64,000 bases of DNA. Origin: Sphingosinicella sp. YJ22 (GTDB lineage: Bacteria > Pseudomonadota > Alphaproteobacteria > Sphingomonadales > Sphingomonadaceae). Both the position numbers and the translations under genes were made by a program. Below are positions 5,059 to 62,466 of this stretch, one piece after another; the first letter of the stretch is position 1, and each line of letters opens with the position of its first letter. The notes under the pieces were generated by a model, which was not told the DNA's origin, ran no database searches, and worked only from the letters and a program-made list of their open reading frames with translations. The stretch lies in assembly GCF_011320075.1 (NCBI RefSeq), contig NZ_JAANPA010000001.1, forward strand, positions 1 to 64,000. Reading direction: 5' to 3'.

Positions 5059-5107
5059 TCTCACACACGGAGTAGAACCGAAGGAGCACCATTGCGCAAG
5101 CGTGGCG

Positions 5108-5137
5108 AATGTCCGCTTTCGACCCATTGCGGACATT
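5108..5137 (+). repeat. palindromic intergenic repeat, copy 1
   Basis: AATGTCCGC, a 12-nt spacer reading TTTCGACCCATT, then GCGGACATT: a perfect 9-bp inverted repeat. Further copies lie at 5452, 5784 and, in opposite orientation, 6364. It overlaps the upstream extension of the small secreted protein frame. Confidence 0.85.
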
Positions 5138-5200
5138 GCTGGAGACTGTCAGGCACGCATGGCACTCGCGAACAGGAGCAGCGCTTAGTAATGGGGCCAG

Positions 5201-5434
5201 ATGAATCGGTATTACGAAACCCGGATCAGACACGCTAAGCGCATTACGATCGCGGTAGCCGCTCTGTCGGTTTGGGCAATCACAAGCGCACTGCTTGATC
5301 GCTACGTTGGGATCAGCGTCGGCTTTTCTGCCGATGCGATTGATGAAGCCTTGATCGTTCTCGCCGGGACCTTGCTCACGTACTTTTTCGTCCGAACTAT
5401 CATCAAGGTGACCGCCGCGTTCTTTCCTTGGTAG
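5201..5434 (+). CDS. small membrane protein with two spans
   Basis: 77 residues: a basic N-terminus, a hydrophobic span at about 15-33 and a second at about 48-68. Lower GC than neighbouring genes. It is bracketed by two copies of the AATGTCCGC palindromic repeat, suggesting a gene carried in with, or inserted among, these repeats. No recognisable family. Confidence 0.5.
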   Translation: MNRYYETRIRHAKRITIAVAALSVWAITSALLDRYVGISVGFSADAIDEALIVLAGTLLTYFFVRTIIKVTAAFFPW

Positions 5435-5451
5435 CGAGGGGCGCTTCGGCT

Positions 5452-5479
5452 TGTCTGCTTTCGACCCATTGCGGACATT
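5452..5479 (+). repeat. palindromic intergenic repeat, copy 2
   Basis: Same spacer and right arm as the copy at 5108 (CGACCCATT then GCGGACATT), with one changed base in the left arm (TGTCTGC). Confidence 0.8.
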
Positions 5480-5504
5480 GCGCATCGGCCCTTAGGACTG
5501 TTGC

Positions 5505-5768
5505 ATGAAGAAACGGCATGGCTTGGCGCGGGCAGTCCTGCCCATGGCTCAGCAAGAGCTTGAAGCCTTGTCCATTGGCGCCCTACTTGCCCGGTTGCAG
5601 CGTTTGCGTTGGTGTGAGGACAGCCGAGCGGAAAGCGATCTCTCCGACGAAGAAGTCCGCTCCGCGGCAGGCTCGATCCTCTTCAAGGAAGATGCGGCCT
5701 GGCGAGCCGCCTATACAGATCTGAAGGAAGTGCTGGCTAACCGCGAGCATCTCGAAAACAAGCCGTAA
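5505..5768 (+). CDS. hypothetical small cytoplasmic protein
   Basis: 87 residues, charged and helical, without signal or membrane segments. ATG 5505 has no clear Shine-Dalgarno; an in-frame ATG 14 codons later is an alternative start. It sits between repeat copies 2 and 3. The central acidic part (S-D-L-S-D-E-E-V) and the C-terminal A-A-Y-x-D-L-K-E-V-L look like a folded helical domain. Function not recognised. Confidence 0.5.
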   Translation: MKKRHGLARAVLPMAQQELEALSIGALLARLQRLRWCEDSRAESDLSDEEVRSAAGSILFKEDAAWRAAYTDLKEVLANREHLENKP

Positions 5769-5783
5769 CGTGCCGAGTGACCA

Positions 5784-5813
5784 AATGTCCGCTTTCCACC
5801 CCAAGCGGACATT
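5784..5813 (+). repeat. palindromic intergenic repeat, copy 3 (variant loop)
   Basis: AATGTCCGC and GCGGACATT are conserved but the loop reads TTTCCACCCCAA. A half copy (GGTGGAAAGCGGAC) follows at about 5855-5869. Confidence 0.8.
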
Positions 5814-5869
5814 CCGGGCGGGCGCCCGCGAGATCCAGGCGAACCCTCGTTAAGGGTGGAAAGCGGACG

Positions 5870-6340
5870 CTATGCCGAGCGCTGTGGCGCCGCGAGCTGT
5901 GCAAAAAGTCCTAGCACATACCTCTTGTAGATTGGCACGACCGCCTCTGCGAACCAGCCGTCCTCCACAGGCACGACGTAGCGTGCGGTGGCTGCCCGAA
6001 GGAATTCTTCGATGTCGGGGAAAAATCGTAGCCGCCCGACTTCAAGTGCATCTTGATAGCGCGTGCAAGAGTCGGCGGGTAGGTAGAACTCGTTGCACCA
6101 AACGTCATAGAACTCACAAACGATAGCAATTGCGCTGCCGGCGCGGAGTAGGTCTATGTCTATATAGTAGGCTTTTGGGTCCCTCTCGGCGTCTATGAAT
6201 TTCAGGGGGTCGAAGCGCACGTTCATATTTACCGCATGGCCGAACCCGCCATAGTCAGTCGTCATTTCGTAATACATCAGGAGGATGTCTCGAAGGGCAT
6301 CGAGTGCCTCCGCGTGATTGTCGTTCGTAATCTGGTGCAT
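5870..6340 (-). CDS. hypothetical protein
   Basis: 156 residues, rich in aromatic and acidic residues (M-Y-Y-E-M-T-T-D-Y-G-G-F-G-H near 24, Y-Y-I-D-I-D-L-L near 56), with no signal or membrane span. ATG 6340 follows a GTG that could also serve as start. GC is visibly lower than the rest of the window. It lies between repeat copies 3 and 4. The fold resembles small immunity-type or SUKH-like proteins only in general character; no assignment is made. Confidence 0.55.
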   Translation of the reverse strand: MHQITNDNHAEALDALRDILLMYYEMTTDYGGFGHAVNMNVRFDPLKFIDAERDPKAYYIDIDLLRAGSAIAIVCEFYDVWCNEFYLPADSCTRYQDALEVGRLRFFPDIEEFLRAATARYVVPVEDGWFAEAVVPIYKRYVLGLFAQLAAPQRSA

Positions 6341-6363
6341 CACGCGAAAGTAACGAGGTCTCC

Positions 6364-6392
6364 AATGTCCGCAATGGGTCGAAAGCGGACAT
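6364..6392 (-). repeat. palindromic intergenic repeat, copy 4 (inverted)
   Basis: The same unit as at 5108 in reverse orientation (AATGTCCGC, AATGGGTCGAAA, GCGGACAT). It closes the lower-GC patch on the trmL side. Confidence 0.85.
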
Positions 6393-6469
6393 AGCCAAGC
6401 TGGCTGAGCGAACGTTCGGATTCAGCCCAGCGAGTGCGGCCCAGAGCCGAGATGGGCGCAACGCGCCGT

Positions 6470-6955: not shown

Positions 6956-7115
6956 TTATCCTCCCCGGCATTTGCCGGGGAGGGGGACCATGCGCAGCAT
7001 GGTGGAGGGGCGCCGCCTCAGGCGGCGTTCTTCTCCGTCGAGAATTCCACGCCTCCGGCGCGGCCCCTCCACCGGCTTCACCGGTCCCCTCCCCGCGAAA
7101 ACGCGGGGAGGATAA
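6956..7115. repeat. TCCTCCCCG palindromic element, copy E1
   Basis: A 160-bp element with perfect 12-bp terminal inverted repeats (TTATCCTCCCCG / CGGGGAGGATAA). Inside each end is a smaller hairpin and an arm containing GGTGGAGGGGC or its complement. It separates trmL from the DUF3592 gene and carries no gene. Confidence 0.9.
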
Positions 7116-7185
7116 GTTGCAGCGGCGATTGCCGTGCTGCCCAGTCTGTGTTTCCTGGGGGCAGGGCAGGGGAGGAAGGGGAGCC

Positions 7186-31385: not shown

Positions 31386-31500
31386 TCCTCCCCGGCACGG
31401 GGAGGTGGCAGCGCGAAGCGCTGACGGAGGGGCTGCTCCGCGCTCGGCGCCAGCCCCTCCACCATGCTTCGCATGGTCCCCCTCCCCGTACCGGGGAGGA
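31386..31500. repeat. TCCTCCCCG palindromic element, copy E2
   Basis: 115 bp with 10-bp ends TCCTCCCCGG / CCGGGGAGGA, inner hairpins CAGCGCGAAGCGCTG and ATGCTTCGCAT, and a central stem AGGGGCTG / CAGCCCCT. It lies between the divergent thiolase and cytochrome genes. Confidence 0.9.
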
Positions 31501-36065: not shown

Positions 36066-37661
36066 GTGACTCAGCTCACCAGCAAGATCGACACGTCTTC
36101 AGATACTTACCGCGCTTATGCTGCGCACAATAAAGGCCTCGCCGAGGAGCTTCGCGAGCGGGTTGCCAAGGCGGCGCTCGGCGGCAACGAGAAGTCGCGT
36201 GAACGCCACACGGCGCGCGGCAAATTGCTTCCGCGCGACCGCGTCGAGCGGCTGCTCGATCCGGGTTCGCCCTTCCTCGAGATCGGCCAGCTCGCCGCCT
36301 GCGACCTCTATCATGGCGAGGTGCCCGGCGCGGGCATGATCGCCGGCATCGGCCGGGTGTCGGGCCGAGAGGCGATGATCCTGTGCAACGACGCCACGGT
36401 CAAAGGCGGCACCTACTATCCGATGACGGTGAAGAAGCATCTCCGCGCCCAGGAGATCGCGCGTGAGAACCGGCTTCCCTGCGTCTACCTGGTCGACAGC
36501 GGCGGCGCGAACCTGCCGCATCAGGCGGAGGTGTTCCCCGATCGCGAGCATTTCGGGCGGATCTTCTACAACCAGGCGCAGATGTCGTCCGAAGGGATCG
36601 CGCAGATCGCCTGCGTGATGGGAAGCTGCACCGCGGGCGGCGCTTACGTCCCGGCGATGTCGGACGAAAGCGTCATCGTAAGGAACCAGGGCACGATCTT
36701 CCTTGGCGGCCCGCCGCTGGTGAAAGCGGCGACGGGCGAGGTGATCTCGGCCGAGGATCTCGGCGGCGGCGATCTCCATGCGCGCAAGTCCGGCGTGGTC
36801 GACCATCTCGCCGAGAATGACGAGCATGCGCTGACCATCGTCCGCGACATCGTCGACCGGCTCAACACGGTGAAGAACGTCGACATCGACCTCGCCGAGC
36901 CGCGTCCGCCGAAGTTCGATCCCGAGGAGCTTTACGGAGTCATCCCGGACGACGTGCGCACGCCCTACGACGTTCACGAGGTGATCGCCCGCATCGTCGA
37001 CGGGTCGGAGCTTCACGAGTTCAAGCCGCTCTACGGCTCGACCCTGGTGTGCGGCTTCGCGCGCATCTGGGGCATCCCGGTCGCGATCCTGGCGAACAAC
37101 GGCATCCTGTTCAGCGAGAGCGCCCTCAAAGGCGCGCATTTCATCGAGCTGGCCTGCCAGCGGCGCGTGCCGCTGCTGTTCCTCCAGAACATCTCCGGCT
37201 TCATGGTTGGCGGCAAATATGAGGCCGAGGGGATCGCCAAGAACGGCGCCAAGCTCGTCACCGCAGTGGCGACTGCGAGCGTTCCGAAGATCACCGTGCT
37301 GATCGGCGGAAGCTTCGGCGCGGGCAATTACGGCATGTGCGGGCGGGCCTATTCGCCGCGCTTCCTGTTCACCTGGCCCAACAGCCGAATCAGCGTGATG
37401 GGCGGCGAGCAGGCGGCGTCGGTGCTGGCCACTGTCCACCGCGACGCCGACAAGTGGACAGCTGAGGAAGCCGAGGCGTTCAAGGCGCCGGTCCGCCAGC
37501 GCTATGAGGACGAGGGCAATCCCTATCACGCGACCGCGCGGCTGTGGGACGACGGGATCATCGACCCCGCGCAGACCCGCGACGTCCTCGGCCTCGCCTT
37601 TGCCGCCACGCTGAACGCGCCCATCCCCGAGCGGCCGCAGTTCGGCGTGTTCAGGATGTGA
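36066..37661 (+). CDS. mccB: methylcrotonyl-CoA carboxylase, carboxyltransferase (beta) subunit
   Basis: Transfers CO2 from carboxybiotin to 3-methylcrotonyl-CoA. 531 residues from a GTG start with AGGGGAG upstream. Carboxyltransferase motifs: [32 protein letters not shown] (beta-specific) and [15 protein letters not shown]. Leucine pathway partner of the biotin subunit at 38158. Confidence 0.95.
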
Positions 37662-37663
37662 CG

Positions 37664-38161
37664 ATGGGGATCGCGCCTTCAAATCCTCCCCGGAACGGGG
37701 AGGGGGACCGCTCGCCGCAGGCGAGCGGTGGAGGGGGCCCCAAGGTCCTCGCGTCCCCGATCAAGGTGGTGAAGCGCGCCCGCAGGCTCCGCAAGGAAAT
37801 GAGCCTGCCGGAGGTTCTGCTGTGGAGGGAGCTCCGCAAGCGGCCGGGTGGCTACAAATTCCGGCGACAGTTTCCGCAGGCGGGCTATTCCCTCGACTTT
37901 GCCTGCCTCGAAGCGAGGCTCGGGATCGAAGTGGACGGCGCGTCGCACGACTGCGGCGACAATCCGTTGCGAGATGCGGTGAGGGACGAGCGGCTTGCCT
38001 CGGCTGGCTTCGCGATGCTCCGCATTCCCGCTCGCGAAGTGCTTTCTGATTTAGACGGTGTGATCATGGGAATTGCCGCGCGTTGCTCGGAGCTGGGCCC
38101 CCTCCACCACCGGCCTGCGGCCGGCGGTCCCCCTCCCCGTTCCGGGGAGGATTTGCGGTGA
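37664..38161 (+). CDS. DUF559 endonuclease (Vsr-like PD-(D/E)XK) carried by a repeat element
   Basis: 165 residues. The core (about 32-140) has E-V-L-L-W-R-E-L-R-K-R, K-F-R-R-Q-F-P, L-D-F-A-C and I-E-V-D-G-A-S-H, the DUF559 pattern of very-short-patch-repair-like nucleases, with R-D-x-x-R-D later. The first 26 residues and the last 20 are encoded by the arms of an inverted repeat and are low-complexity. It starts 2 bases after mccB stops, and its TGA overlaps the GTG of mccA. The catalytic residues look intact. Confidence 0.85.
   Translation: MGIAPSNPPRNGEGDRSPQASGGGGPKVLASPIKVVKRARRLRKEMSLPEVLLWRELRKRPGGYKFRRQFPQAGYSLDFACLEARLGIEVDGASHDCGDNPLRDAVRDERLASAGFAMLRIPAREVLSDLDGVIMGIAARCSELGPLHHRPAAGGPPPRSGEDLR
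37681..38154. mobile_element. nuclease-bearing inverted-repeat element, copy E3
   Basis: Two 60-bp arms (37681-37740 and 38095-38154). The outer 29 bases are a perfect inverted match and most of the rest follows, including internal hairpins (GCTCGCC/GGCGAGC). The arms have the same sequence as the gene-less elements elsewhere, but here they enclose a DUF559 nuclease gene. No target duplication is visible. Confidence 0.75.
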
Positions 38162-40098
38162 TTGCTTCCCTTCTCATTGCCAACCGGGGCGAGATTGCGT
38201 GCCGGATCATTCGGACGGCGCGTCGGCTCGGGATCAGGACGGTCGCCGTCTATTCGGACGCGGACGCCAAGGCGCTGCATGTGCGCGAGGCGGACGAGGC
38301 GGTGCATATCGGGCCGAGCCCGGCGCGGGAGAGCTATCTCGTCGGCGAGAAGATCATCGCGGCGGCCAAGGCGACCGGGGCGGAGGCGATCCATCCGGGT
38401 TATGGCTTCCTGTCCGAGAATGCCGAGTTCGCCGAGGCGGTCGAGGCGGCGGGGCTGGTGTGGGTTGGGCCGAAGGCGGCGTCGATCCGGGCGATGGGGC
38501 TCAAGGACGCCGCCAAGAAGCTGATGCAGGAGGCGGGGGTTCCGACCACGCCGGGCTATCTCGGCGAGGGCCAGGCGCCGGAGCGGCTCCAGGCCGAGGC
38601 GGACGGGATCGGCTATCCGGTGCTGATCAAGGCCGTCGCGGGCGGCGGCGGCAAGGGCATGCGCAAGGTCAACGCGGCCGGCGAGTTCGCGGAGATGCTG
38701 CTGTCGTGCAAGCGCGAGGCGGCGTCCTCGTTCGGCGACGACCGCGTGCTCATCGAGAAATATGTCGAGCGGCCGCGACACATCGAGGTTCAGGTGTTCG
38801 GCGACACCCATGGCAACGTCGTCCATCTGTTCGAGCGCGACTGCTCGCTCCAGCGCCGCCACCAGAAGGTGATCGAGGAAGCGCCGGCGCCGGGAATGGA
38901 CGAGGCGACCCGCGCCGCGGTGTGCGAGGCGGCGGTCAAGGCGGCGCGCGCGGTCGACTATGTCGGCGCGGGGACGATCGAGTTCATCGCCGACGCCAGC
39001 GAAGGCCTCCGCGCCGACCGCATCTGGTTCATGGAGATGAACACGCGTCTCCAGGTCGAGCATCCGGTGACCGAGGAGATTACCGGCCAGGATTTGGTCG
39101 AGTGGCAGTTGCGCGTCGCGAGCGGCGAGCCTCTGCCGTTGAGGCAAGAGGAGCTCAGCATCAACGGCTGGGCGATGGAGGCCCGGCTTTATGCGGAGAA
39201 TCCCGCTGCCGGCTTCCTGCCGAGCACCGGGCCGCTGAAGTATTTCGGATTGCCGTCCCGCAAGAGCCGGGATGGGCGGAGCTTGCGCGTCGAGACCGGG
39301 GTTTGTGAAGGAGACGAGATCTCGAGCTTCTACGATCCTATGATCGCAAAGATCATCGTGCTCGCGAAGGACCGAGAACAGGCTGCGCGCAGCCTCGCGC
39401 TTGATTGTAGCTTCGTCGACAGTTGGCCGGTGAAGACCAATGCGCGGTTCCTAGTCGCGGCGCTCGAAGATCCTGATTTCGTTTCCGGCAATGTCGATAC
39501 CGGTCTGATCGCGCGCAAGCTCGATGAACTGGTTCAGCCCGACGAACCGACACAGAATGCACTTCAGTCCGTCGCGCATATGGTGACCGACCGTTTGAAG
39601 GGCGGGCGATCCGAAACCATTCGCGACACCTACCTGAGCCAGGAACCAGGCCCTTGGGCGCAGCAATGGGGCACCCGACTCAATCGCGATCCCGCTCCGG
39701 CGGTGGTACGTCTGACGGATGGGCGCACAGTTTTCGAATTCGAATTCAACCATCAAGAAATCAATTCGTCGCGGTGGGTCGAGCGCGTCGACGAAGGATA
39801 TCTGGTCAAGGACAACGGCAGCAACTTCATCCTGACCGAAGCGCGAGCGGGCGGGGCTGCAGGTGGAACAGAAGCCGACGGCGCGCTGATTTCGCCGATG
39901 CCGGGGAAGATCATCGCAGTCGAAGTGCGACAAGGGGACAGCGTGGCCAAGGGGCAGAAGCTGGTGACTCTCGAGGCGATGAAGATGGAGCACAGCCTCG
40001 TCGCGCCGTTCGATGGCGTGGTCGCGGAGCTGAACGCGGCCGAGGGCGGGCAGGTGAGTGAAGGCACCCTGCTGGCTCGGATCGAGAAGGGGGAATAG
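38158..40098 (+). CDS. mccA: methylcrotonyl-CoA carboxylase, biotin-containing (alpha) subunit
   Basis: Carboxylates biotin with bicarbonate and ATP and holds the biotin. 646 residues: biotin carboxylase domain to about 445 (L-I-A-N-R-G-E-I-A-C-R; K-A-V-A-G-G-G-G-K-G-M; E-M-N-T-R-L-Q-V-E-H) and a biotinyl domain at the C-terminus with E-A-M-K-M-E-H near 609. Start is GTG 38158; the codons before it belong to the repeat arm. GC is locally lower around 39340-39900. Confidence 0.94.
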   Translation: MIASLLIANRGEIACRIIRTARRLGIRTVAVYSDADAKALHVREADEAVHIGPSPARESYLVGEKIIAAAKATGAEAIHPGYGFLSENAEFAEAVEAAGLVWVGPKAASIRAMGLKDAAKKLMQEAGVPTTPGYLGEGQAPERLQAEADGIGYPVLIKAVAGGGGKGMRKVNAAGEFAEMLLSCKREAASSFGDDRVLIEKYVERPRHIEVQVFGDTHGNVVHLFERDCSLQRRHQKVIEEAPAPGMDEATRAAVCEAAVKAARAVDYVGAGTIEFIADASEGLRADRIWFMEMNTRLQVEHPVTEEITGQDLVEWQLRVASGEPLPLRQEELSINGWAMEARLYAENPAAGFLPSTGPLKYFGLPSRKSRDGRSLRVETGVCEGDEISSFYDPMIAKIIVLAKDREQAARSLALDCSFVDSWPVKTNARFLVAALEDPDFVSGNVDTGLIARKLDELVQPDEPTQNALQSVAHMVTDRLKGGRSETIRDTYLSQEPGPWAQQWGTRLNRDPAPAVVRLTDGRTVFEFEFNHQEINSSRWVERVDEGYLVKDNGSNFILTEARAGGAAGGTEADGALISPMPGKIIAVEVRQGDSVAKGQKLVTLEAMKMEHSLVAPFDGVVAELNAAEGGQVSEGTLLARIEKGE

Positions 40099-40107
40099 CC
40101 GGCAAGC

Positions 40108-40193
40108 GGCTTGCCTGAGCTTGTCGAAGGCCTTTCCTTCTTCTTCGCGCTCGGCAAAGTGAAGGAGAGGGCTTCGACAAGCTCAGCCAAGCC
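40108..40193. repeat. inverted repeat (CTGAGCTTGTCGAAG type)
   Basis: GGCTTG..CCTGAGCTTGTCGAAGG is mirrored by CTTCGACAAGCTCAGCC..AAGCC across about 40 bases. This is a widely dispersed proteobacterial intergenic repeat, located between mccA and the MaoC gene. Confidence 0.8.
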
Positions 40194-40208
40194 GGAACGG
40201 GGCCAGTT

Positions 40209-53612: not shown

Positions 53613-56600
53613 ATGACCGGCGCGGACTGGACCTTTTCGATCGACCGCGGCGGCACCTTCACCGACATCGTCGCGCTCGGCCCGGACGGACGGCGGCACG
53701 TGCGCAAGCTGCTGTCGGACAATCCCGGCCAATATGACGACGCCGCCACCGCGGGCATCCGGGCGATTCTCGCGGAGCATTGCGGCGGCCGCGCCGCGAC
53801 GGTGAAGATGGGCACGACGGTCGCGACGAACGCGCTGCTCGAGCGCAAGGGCGAGCGGGTTGCGCTGGCGATCACCGCCGGCTTCGGCGACGCTCTGCGC
53901 ATCGGCTACCAGTCGCGGCCCGACATCTTCGCGCGTAAGATCGTGCTTCCGGAGCCGCTCTACAGCCATGTGATCGAGGTCGACGAGCGCGTAACGGCGG
54001 ACGGCGAAGTGCTTCGCCCGCTCGATCTCGCGGCGGCGGAGGCAGGGCTGCAGGCGGCCGTCGACGAGGGCTATCGCGCCCTGGCGATCGTGCTGGTGCA
54101 TGGCTGGCGCTGGACCGCTCACGAGGCGGCGCTGGCCGAGGCGGCGCGGCGGATCGGCTTCACCCAGGTCTCGGCGAGCCACGAGGTCGAGCCGCTGATC
54201 AAGCTGGTCGGTCGCGGCGACACCAGCGTGGTCGACGCCTATCTGTCGCCGGTGCTGCGCCGCTATGTCGATCGCGTGGTGGCCGGCATCGGTTCGGGAC
54301 CGCGCCTGTTCTTCATGCAGTCGAATGGCGGCCTCACCGACGCCGCCGCCTTCCGCGGCAAGGATGCGATCCTGTCGGGGCCGGCAGGCGGCATCGTCGG
54401 AATGGCGCGGACAGCCGAGGAAGCGGGCTTCGGCCATGTCATCGGCTTCGACATGGGCGGCACCTCGACCGACGTGTCGCATTTCGCCGGCACCTACGAG
54501 CGGACCAGCGAGCGGGCGGTGGCGGGCGTCCGGGTGCGCGCGCCGATGCTCGAGATCCACACCGTCGCGGCGGGCGGCGGCTCGGTCTGCCACTATGACG
54601 GCAGCCGCTTCCGGGTCGGACCGGACAGCGCCGGAGCGGTGCCGGGCCCGGCCTGCTACCGGCGCGGCGGGCCGCTCACCATCACCGACTGCAACGTCGT
54701 GCTCGGCAAGATCCGGCCGGAGCATTTCCCCGCGGTGTTCGGACCGGGCGGCGACGCGCTGATCGACGCGGAGGCTTCGCTGGCGCGGGTGAACGAGATC
54801 GCCGGGCCCGCCGGGATGGAGCCGCGCGCGGTGGCGGAGGGCTTCGTGCGAATCGCGGTCGACAACATGGCCAATGCGATCAAGCAGATCTCGATCGCCC
54901 GCGGTCACGACGTCACCCGCTACACCCTGCAATGCTTCGGCGGCGCGGGCGGCCAGCATGCCTGCCTCGTCGCGGACGCGCTCGGGATAGAGCGGGTGAT
55001 GATCCATCCGCTCGCCGGAGTGCTCAGCGCCTACGGCATGGGTCTGGCGGACATGGTCGAGCTGAGGCAGCGCACCGTCGCCGGCGCGGCGCTGGAGACC
55101 GTGCTCGGCGAGTTGGAAAGCGAGGCCGTGGCGGCGCTCCAGGCGCAAGGTGTCGAGGCGCCCGAGGTCCGGCGCCGCGCCGCGCTTCGCTACGAGGGCA
55201 GCGACACCGCGCTGGAGGTGCCGGTCGGGGAGGGCATGGAAGCGGATTTCGTTGAGGCGCACCGCACCCGCTTCGGTTTCGTCTCCGACGCTCCGGTGGT
55301 GGTCGAGACGGCGATCGTCGAAGTCGTTGGGAAGGGTGAGCACTCATCCTCCCTGTCGCGAAGCGATGGGGAGGGGGACCATGCGCAGCATGGTGGAGGG
55401 GCTGTTCGAGACCCGCGCCAACGCCCCTCCACCGCCTTCGGCGGTCCCCCTCCCCATGAGGCTTCGCCTCACAGGGAGGATGAAGTGCTGCAGCGGGATG
55501 CGCTCTCCCCCGGCGCCGTCATCTCCGGCCCCGCAATCATCATCGATCAGGCCGCGACCACCGTGATCGAGCCCGGCTGGCAGGCCGAGGTCGATGCGCA
55601 CGCCAACCTCATCCTCACCCGCGCGGTGCCGCGCGAGAGCGCGCCGGCGATGGGGACGGAGGTCGACCCCGTCACCCTCGAGGTGATGGGCAACCTCTTC
55701 ATGGCGATCGCCGAGGAGATGGGCGTCGCGCTGATGAACACCGCCTCGTCGGTGAACATCAAGGAGCGGCTCGATTTCTCCTGCGCGATCTTCGACCGCG
55801 GCGGCGCCCTGATCGCCAACGCGCCGCACATCCCGGTCCATCTCGGATCGATGGGCGACAGCATCCGGACGATCATCGAGGCGCGCGGTGATCGGCGCGA
55901 CGGGCGCGGCATGAAGCCGGGCGACGTCTATGTCCTCAACGCGCCCTATCGCGGCGGCACGCATTTGCCCGACATCACCGTGATCATGCCGGTGTTCGCC
56001 GACGAGGGCGACGCGGAGCCCGCCTGGTTCGTCGCCGCGCGCGGCCATCATGCCGATATCGGCGGGATCAAGCCGGGGTCGATGCCGCCGAACAGCCGCG
56101 ACGTGCACGAAGAAGGCGTGCTGATCGACAATATGCTGCTGGTGGATGCCGGCCGATTCCTCGAAGCAGAGATGCGGGCCTTGCTCGCGGAAGGCCGCTG
56201 GCCGGCGCGCAACCCCGACCGCAACATCTCCGACCTCAAGGCCCAGATCGCCGCCTGCGCGCGCGGCGCGAGCGAGCTGAGGCGCATCGCCGCGGAGAAG
56301 GGGCGGGCGTTCGTCGACGCCTATATGGGCCACGTCATGGCCAATGCCGAGGAGGCGGTGCGGCGGCTGATCGGCACTCTGAAGGACGGCCGCTTTGCTT
56401 ACGAGATGGACAACGGCGCGGTGGTTTCCGTGACGGTCACCGTGGACCGCGAGGCGCGCTCGGCGGTGGTCGATTTCGCCGGGACGAGCGGCCAGCTGCC
56501 GGACAATTTCAACGCGCCTTATTCGATCTGCCGCGCCGCGACGCTCTACGTGTTCCGAACCCTCGTCGACGACTCGATCCCCATGAACGACGGGTGCATG

Positions 56601-62354: not shown

Positions 62355-62466
62355 TCCCCTCCCGCTCGCGGGAGGGGCCGGGGGTGGGGAGGCCGGTGAA
62401 CAGTCACAGCCCCCGGTGAAGCTTCCAGGTCACCCCATCCCCAACCCCTCCCGCACGCGGGAGGGG
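62355..62466. repeat. CCCCTCCCGC...GCGGGAGGGG palindromic element
   Basis: About 112 bp with hairpins at both ends (CCCTCCCGCTCGCGGGAGGG and CCCTCCCGCACGCGGGAGGG) and an inner GGGGGTGGGGA/TCCCCAACCCC. A different family from the TCCTCCC elements. Lies between convergent genes and probably ends the psp transcript. Confidence 0.8.

What the first reader, a model, noticed from the sequence alone, without database searches (positions are those of the whole stretch)
37664..38161. DUF559 nuclease gene enclosed by the arms of a dispersed palindromic element
The 60-bp inverted arms (outer 29 bp perfect) have the same sequence as gene-less elements at 6956, 31386, 57212 and 59094, yet here they enclose an intact Vsr-like nuclease. 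The nuclease frame runs through both arms. This suggests an autonomous repeat-nuclease unit with short derivatives, comparable in logic to REP/RAYT or to homing elements. It also sits between two subunits of one enzyme without breaking either.
Basis: partly seen in the sequence, partly recalled or inferred. Interest (0 to 1): 0.82.

Follow-up and report, generated by a model that had tools for sequence, protein, structure and literature searches.

The report
Nuclease gene inside its palindromic repeats
A small gene for a DNA-cutting enzyme of unknown role sits between two mirror-image folded DNA repeats that match it in kind, while short copies of such repeats without the gene are scattered over the chromosome, which points to a little-known enzyme-and-repeat partnership resembling, but not belonging to, the known REP/RAYT system.

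Summary
Confirmed and much broader than the finding. The window's DUF559 nuclease (PF04480) is enclosed by 61-nt, 92% inverted arms. All six DUF559 genes found in this genome are enclosed this way, each by its own arm pair. Among 109 testable loci of the order, 94 beat every control placement; by genomic site, 38 of 45. Arm architecture follows the nuclease tree: 28 of 29 members of one clade carry double-hairpin arms, 0 of 65 outside it. Genomes with full DUF559 genes are mostly rich in such palindromes and those without mostly are not (28/38 against 11/106 in the class; 12/20 against 5/116 elsewhere in the phylum). No RAYT-type transposase was found in this genome. Two orthologous junctions show empty, gene-less and gene-bearing states. 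The arms resemble in build the E. coli BoxC/PIT 'intrastrand triplex' repeats; I found no partner gene for those in the papers I could search. Best reading: a REPIN/RAYT-like partnership built on a PD-(D/E)XK, homing/Vsr-like nuclease. Cleavage and movement are inferred. The gene itself seldom moves.

The parts
37680..37740 (+). left arm: head hairpin TCCTCCCC-GGAAC-GGGGAGG, second hairpin, purine tail GGTGGAGGGG towards the gene
   Evidence: as single strand two hairpins, 0 of 200 shuffles fold as well
38095..38155 (-). right arm, inverted copy of the left arm; second-hairpin stem differs but still pairs
   Evidence: 2 of 200 shuffles fold as well
37664..38161 (+). open frame of the DUF559 nuclease; GTG codons at 37766 and 37769 lie just after the left arm
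37769..38086 (+). DUF559 (PF04480) core, PD-(D/E)XK fold
6956..7116 (.). gene-less inverted pair, sub-type like the arms of another DUF559 copy (L005)
31386..31500 (.). gene-less inverted pair, same sub-type as the unit
55348..55479 (.). gene-less inverted pair (head coordinates), not in the finding; sub-type like L002
57212..57345 (.). gene-less inverted pair, sub-type like L002
59094..59212 (.). gene-less inverted pair, same sub-type as the unit
62358..62464 (.). gene-less inverted pair (head coordinates), single-hairpin CCCCTCCC/GGGAGGGG type, not in the finding
36066..37661 (+). upstream neighbour, carboxyltransferase-domain subunit
38158..40098 (+). downstream neighbour, biotin carboxylase / biotin carrier subunit; its GTG start overlaps the DUF559 stop

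Best explanation
The unit is a nuclease gene plus its cognate pair of structured palindromic arms. The single-domain PD-(D/E)XK nuclease recognises and cuts or nicks the folded arm (hairpin plus purine tail able to form an intrastrand triplex), most easily when replication exposes one strand. Repair or copying then places a folded arm pair at a new intergenic junction. Short gene-less pairs (about 110-150 bp) are the usual product and spread. The gene-bearing unit rarely inserts and is mostly inherited, lost, or replaced by another lineage. Shown: enclosure, matching arms, nuclease-arm co-variation, conserved arm structure, co-occurrence of gene and repeats, and empty/gene-less/gene-bearing alleles. 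Inferred: recognition, cleavage and copying of the arms by the nuclease.
For: Own genome: 6 of 6 DUF559 genes found are enclosed, each by its own arm pair. Order: 94 of 109 loci above the maximum of 176 control placements; 38 of 45 sites. Class: 18 of 29 loci above the maximum of 145 controls. Arm similarity is 0.68 within a locus and 0.30 between unrelated loci; Mantel rho 0.60 over 39 sites, 0 of 200 permutations reached it in each of 20 resamplings. Double-hairpin arms: 28 of 29 in one nuclease clade, 0 of 65 outside. At one junction two unrelated nucleases each carry their own arm type. Second stem pairs in 46 of 47 arms with 21 stem sequences. The tail tends to be the mirror of the head purine strand: 0.824 observed, 0.790 the largest of 200 permutations. 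Gene and repeat co-occur. No Y1 transposase match in the own genome. Empty and gene-less alleles at two sites. Fold nearest to a Neisseria endonuclease-like protein and to homing endonuclease I-Bth0305I.
Against: No insertion was caught between near-identical strains, and no target-site duplication could be read. Units at shared sites are old, and within-genome copies are diverged, so present movement of the gene is unproven. Linkage alone can produce arm-gene co-variation. Exceptions: 11 of 106 class genomes without full DUF559 are repeat-rich, and 10 of 38 with it are not; G314 (83 matches, 21 control) and G342 (101 against 6) are rich without it. The reversed control pattern also rises with DUF559 count (0.68), and with heads divided by control the correlation falls from 0.89 to 0.60. 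The genome search can miss genes: E. coli YcjD is a strong PF04480 match (167 bits), yet the tool's control set, which includes an E. coli, did not ring there. The own-genome head-to-arm match is weak (p 0.045). E. coli ycjD has one good repeat beside it, a degenerate second head and no scored arm pair.
Confidence: 0.6

Rival explanations
1. Homing-type element: the nuclease cuts alleles or gene-less pairs that lack the gene, and repair copies the gene between existing arms. The arms are landing pads; the gene moves between arm pairs and the arms spread by other means.
For: Nearest solved relatives include homing endonuclease I-Bth0305I. At two junctions a gene-less pair occupies the place where a relative has arms plus gene. 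At one junction two unrelated nuclease lineages occur.
Against: Arm architecture follows the nuclease clade (28 of 29 against 0 of 65), and at the shared junction both arms differ along with the gene. Free homing into ready-made arms would break that link unless the target is equally specific.
Confidence: 0.2
2. Structural maintenance: the nuclease is a repair enzyme that trims or protects hairpin/triplex-forming repeats (Vsr-like upkeep) and keeps such repeats tolerable; the repeats spread by replication slippage or other enzymes.
For: A Caulobacter DUF559 protein, VsrA, is reported to cause a DNA damage response in cells lacking a cytosine methylase and is proposed to act in mismatch repair (PMC12907096, passages). 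Repeat number rises with DUF559 number (Spearman 0.89 over 41 relatives).
Against: Does not explain why each gene lies inside a matching arm pair, nor why arm type follows nuclease clade.
Confidence: 0.12
3. Hitchhiking: palindromes accumulate at gene ends, and small non-essential genes such as DUF559 sit in the same permissive junctions; arms match by gene conversion.
For: A gene-end junction in this genus carries several kinds of palindrome in different species, and E. coli repeat pairs can collapse by deletion between short repeats.
Against: None of the other ORFs of the window's greedy set is so enclosed (best 38 against 76). Enclosure is usual for DUF559 in the order, and genomes without it mostly lack the repeats.
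Confidence: 0.05

Closest known systems
REPIN / RAYT (REP-associated tyrosine transposase) system
   Same: Inverted doublets of palindromes; a nuclease gene flanked by them; cognate co-variation; genes mostly inherited, short pairs numerous; orphan repeats after gene loss (PMC3686654 and PMC3733652, passages).
   Different: PD-(D/E)XK nuclease instead of HUH Y1; no Y1 match in this genome; the arms add a purine tail or second hairpin.
BoxC / PIT / TM intrastrand-triplex repeats
   Same: Head CCCTCNCCC-GGGNGAGGG followed by a GGGNGAGGG tail; in E. coli K-12 five inverted A+B pairs; more than 260 genomes (PMC4666352, abstract, passages and three sections). 15 of 188 DUF559 arms, in 13 of 94 loci, match the published consensus letter for letter.
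   Different: That text has no occurrence of nuclease, ycjD, DUF559 or Vsr and reports no association with mobile elements. The window's own arms are a variant with a shorter head and a second hairpin.
I-Bth0305I and other Vsr-like homing endonucleases
   Same: Fold (3r3p, Foldseek E 9e-5; profile E 6.5e-5).
   Different: No intron, intein or split gene here; the gene lies between structured repeats at intergenic junctions.
DUF559 / YcjD / VsrA family
   Same: Same Pfam family; YcjD was placed in the PD-(D/E)XK superfamily (PMC1189080, passages).
   Different: No repeat link was seen in the paper lists obtained, some of them capped.

Membership tests
REP/RAYT | HUH Y1 transposase (PF01797) | tested here: not met
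   0 matches in the own genome; Y1 count against repeat count Spearman 0.30, p 0.06
REP/RAYT | palindromes in inverted doublets, gene flanked by them | tested here: met
REP/RAYT | repeat class co-varies with the nuclease | tested here: met
REP/RAYT | GTAG/GGAG-type tetranucleotide tag | not tested
   no systematic test was made
BoxC/PIT/TM repeats | published consensus of head plus third-strand tail | tested here: inconclusive
   15 of 188 arms match it exactly; the window's arms do not; mirror head-tail covariation 0.824 against permutation maximum 0.790
BoxC/PIT/TM repeats | forms a triplex | not testable with these tools
   needs CD, NMR or chemical probing
DUF559 (PF04480) | profile score above the curated cut-off | tested here: met
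   87.7 bits, cut-off 20.6
Vsr mismatch endonuclease | match to the Vsr family model | tested here: not met
   no TIGR00632 hit for the window protein at E 0.01; one of four proteins (L003) reaches 20.3 bits, cut-off 97.85
homing endonuclease | cuts alleles that lack its gene | not testable with these tools
   fold similarity only
DDE-type insertion sequence / MITE | target-site duplication | tested here: inconclusive
   none evident by eye at two junctions compared between diverged species

The most novel reading that the evidence does not exclude
DUF559 nucleases are the long-missing partners of BoxC/PIT-type intrastrand-triplex repeats across Pseudomonadota: a second, independent kind of 'nuclease plus palindromic repeat' partnership in which the enzyme reads a hairpin-with-third-strand DNA structure and disperses gene-less copies of it.
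Probability: 0.5. Interest if true: 0.9.

Novelty: new variant of a known kind. Interest (0 to 1): 0.8.

Why it matters
BoxC/PIT/TM repeats have been known since the 1990s without a known maker (PMC4666352, passages), and DUF559 is a widespread family with little assigned function. Tying one to the other gives both a testable role, suggests that the REPIN/RAYT logic arose with a different nuclease fold, and offers a candidate enzyme that reads a DNA triplex or hairpin.

Tried and rejected
E. coli fabI-ycjD-sapF as a strain-level empty site: rejected. The three strains looked at that lack the full match carry an efflux operon beside fabI. Strain variation of E. coli repeat pairs: the few alleles read show deletions, one of them exactly between CCCTCTCCC repeats, or unrelated replacement sequence; no clear insertion seen. 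Own-genome heads against own arms: weak (p 0.045). Arm-through protein as a conserved feature: rejected. Phylum-level loci: against that call's control maximum of 71 only 7 of 26 pass (family 2 of 3, class 4 of 11, outside the class 1 of 12). Three of its 130 control placements exceed 37: two overlapping ones on a repeat pair in L196 and one in L202. At the threshold of 37 used for the class loci, 6 of 12 outside the class pass (scores). Defence role: no PADLOC hit for the window protein.

Rows dropped: 6 of 115 loci with under 150 bp on a side; 3 of 48 sites with only such loci. Of the 130 DUF559 matches, 15 of the weakest or partial ones were not fetched for the enclosure test (one of them came later and is in the tree). 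Matches with E above 1e-20 were counted as 'without full DUF559'; G029 and G037 were treated likewise. At the carboxylase junction 19 of 22 loci were readable; at the L002 junction 20 of 24.

Full report
Observation. The two arms (37680-37740 and 38095-38155) are a 61-nt, 92% inverted pair, the longest within 1 kb in the window, and enclose a DUF559 gene (PF04480, E 5.7e-25). Each arm folds as single-stranded DNA into a head hairpin and a second hairpin. By one rule applied to a greedy set of 59 ORFs of the window, the best scores 38; the DUF559 ORF from 37664 scores 76 (the set contained the DUF559 frame only with an earlier start). The window also holds six gene-less inverted pairs, 107-152 bp from head to head.

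Own genome. Six DUF559 genes were found. All six lie between inverted palindromic arms, and each pair has its own sequence (E 7e-22 to 7e-9). A general head pattern occurs 132 times against 16 for its reversed control, or 191 against 29 with longer loops. No Y1/RAYT transposase match is found in this genome.

Relatives. DUF559 matches occur in 32 of 41 genomes, 130 in all. I read 115 loci: 6 own, 29 returned by the search and 80 fetched. Of the 109 with at least 150 bp on both sides, 94 exceed the maximum (36) and 98 the 99th percentile (31) of 176 control placements in the same loci. Because many loci are orthologous, I grouped them by homologous flanks into 48 sites: 38 of 45 testable sites have at least half their members enclosed. 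Among the 11 loci at or below the 99th percentile, several have a gene-less pair or single heads on one side. In the class, 18 of 29 loci exceed the maximum (37) of 145 controls. In the phylum sample the control maximum was 71, set by a repeat pair in one control stretch, and 7 of 26 loci exceed it; outside the class that is 1 of 12, or 6 of 12 at the threshold of 37, which 3 of 130 control placements also exceed.

Cognate pairing. Over 94 enclosed loci the two arms of a locus are 0.68 alike, arms of the same site in other genomes 0.53, arms of other sites in the same genome 0.29, unrelated arms 0.30. Arm similarity follows protein similarity (Mantel rho 0.60, 39 sites, 0 of 200 permutations in each of 20 resamplings). 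In the nuclease tree one clade of 35 (SH-aLRT 99) has double-hairpin arms with a GGTGGAGGGG-type tail in 28 of 29 enclosed members, against 0 of 65 outside; by site 15 of 16 against 0 of 24. At one junction (site 6) the window's species carries a unit of that clade with that arm type, while three relatives carry an unrelated nuclease with single-hairpin arms. Linkage alone could give such co-variation, but it shows that the arms belong to the gene.

Arm structure. In 47 double-hairpin arms from 15 sites the second stem pairs (at most one mismatch) in 46, with 21 different stem sequences. The tail tends to be the mirror image of the head's purine strand, as an antiparallel purine triplex needs: own stem on own tail 0.824, permuted 0.766, maximum of 200 permutations 0.790 (36 sites). 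This is modest: 133 of 173 arms do better than the average of others' stems. The build is that of BoxC/PIT/TM repeats of E. coli (PMC4666352; abstract, passages and sections 12, 15 and 18 read); 15 of 188 arms, in 13 of 94 loci, match its consensus exactly, the window's arms not. That text does not contain the words nuclease, ycjD, DUF559 or Vsr, and says the motif was not found with transposons, phages or plasmids. In K-12, TM number 9 of its table (1351204-1351239) lies 167 bp from the 3' end of ycjD, an E. coli DUF559 gene (PF04480, 167 bits), which has no scored arm pair.

Co-occurrence. Over 41 relatives full DUF559 count and head count correlate (Spearman 0.89); heads exceed 3 times control in 28 of 30 genomes with and 1 of 11 without. 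Y1 count gives 0.30, p 0.06. The reversed control pattern also correlates with DUF559 (0.68), and heads divided by control give 0.60 (p 4e-5), so base composition and genome size explain part. In the class 28 of 38 genomes with full DUF559 are enriched against 11 of 106 without (Fisher 5e-13). Outside the class it is 12 of 20 against 5 of 116 (Fisher 1e-8). Contrasts within a genus: 177 (control 5) with four genes and 2 (control 5) without (G262, G266); 54 (0) with and 4 (2) without (G052, G167). Exceptions: G314, G342, G230 and G060 are rich without a full gene; G243 and G116 have the gene without enrichment. These tests are not phylogenetically corrected. The gene search misses some genes: its control set includes an E. 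coli, which did not ring for PF04480 although YcjD of K-12 is a strong match, so some 'without' genomes may hold an unseen gene.

Alleles. At the carboxylase junction 19 of 22 loci were readable: six have the unit in one orientation (own genome included), two in the other, one only a gene-less pair, two remnants of one arm, six other sequence without heads, and two are empty (8 and 13 bp). At the L002 junction 20 of 24 were readable: the unit only in the own genome, a gene-less pair in G016, single heads in two, none in 16, including G013, where the flanks abut. No target duplication was evident by eye. Within a genome the nuclease genes are at most 68% identical in DNA, so recent multiplication of the gene was not seen. 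Cores are open in 110 of 115.

Protein. The model of the core (pLDDT 86.5) is nearest to 3hrl, a Neisseria endonuclease-like protein, and to 3r3p, the catalytic domain of homing endonuclease I-Bth0305I; Vsr is weaker. Invariant residues over 56 sequences include D43, D56 and H60, with E54 nearly so.

Comparison. In logic this matches REPIN/RAYT (PMC3686654 and PMC3733652, passages seen): inverted palindrome doublets, a flanked nuclease gene, cognate classes, orphan repeats. It is not a member, since the enzyme is not HUH. I found no paper linking DUF559 to palindromic repeats: DUF559 with 'repetitive extragenic palindromic' gave 0 papers; DUF559 alone gave 14, seen as titles and abstract starts, one of them also by passages; wider searches gave capped lists in which none stood out. 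The library lacks most subscription journals and preprints.

Judgement. That nuclease and arms form one cognate unit is close to established (my estimate 0.9). That the nuclease makes or spreads the repeats is the best reading (0.6) and needs biochemistry.

Noticed in passing
window 5107-6400: Several inverted copies of AATGTCCGCTTTCGACCCATTGCGGACATT-like sequence, another repeat family (I4, I8, I14).
   Followed up: no
window 40107-40194: Inverted repeat with a 20-bp gap just downstream of the biotin carboxylase gene (I6).
   Followed up: no
L230, L231, L232, L243: At the L002 junction other species carry GTCATCCCGG-type or GTCACCCTGAA-type palindromes, apparently other REP families, so this gene-end junction attracts several kinds of repeat.
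   Followed up: partly
L154, L158: DUF559 lies in the opposite orientation at the carboxylase junction in two species (G001, G020); inversion between the arms is one possible cause.
   Followed up: partly
L117, L118, L119: Three E. coli strains looked at carry an RND efflux operon beside fabI; 2,045 of 5,375 matching genomes have no place covering 80% of the fabI-ycjD-sapF query.
   Followed up: no
L198, L200, L221: In three phylum-sample loci the purine tail lies on the outer side of the arms, the opposite of the window's layout.
   Followed up: no
The genome search control set: The PF04480 search did not ring in its control E. coli although K-12 YcjD matches PF04480 with 167 bits: the whole-genome family search has false negatives or that control genome lacks the gene.
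   Followed up: partly
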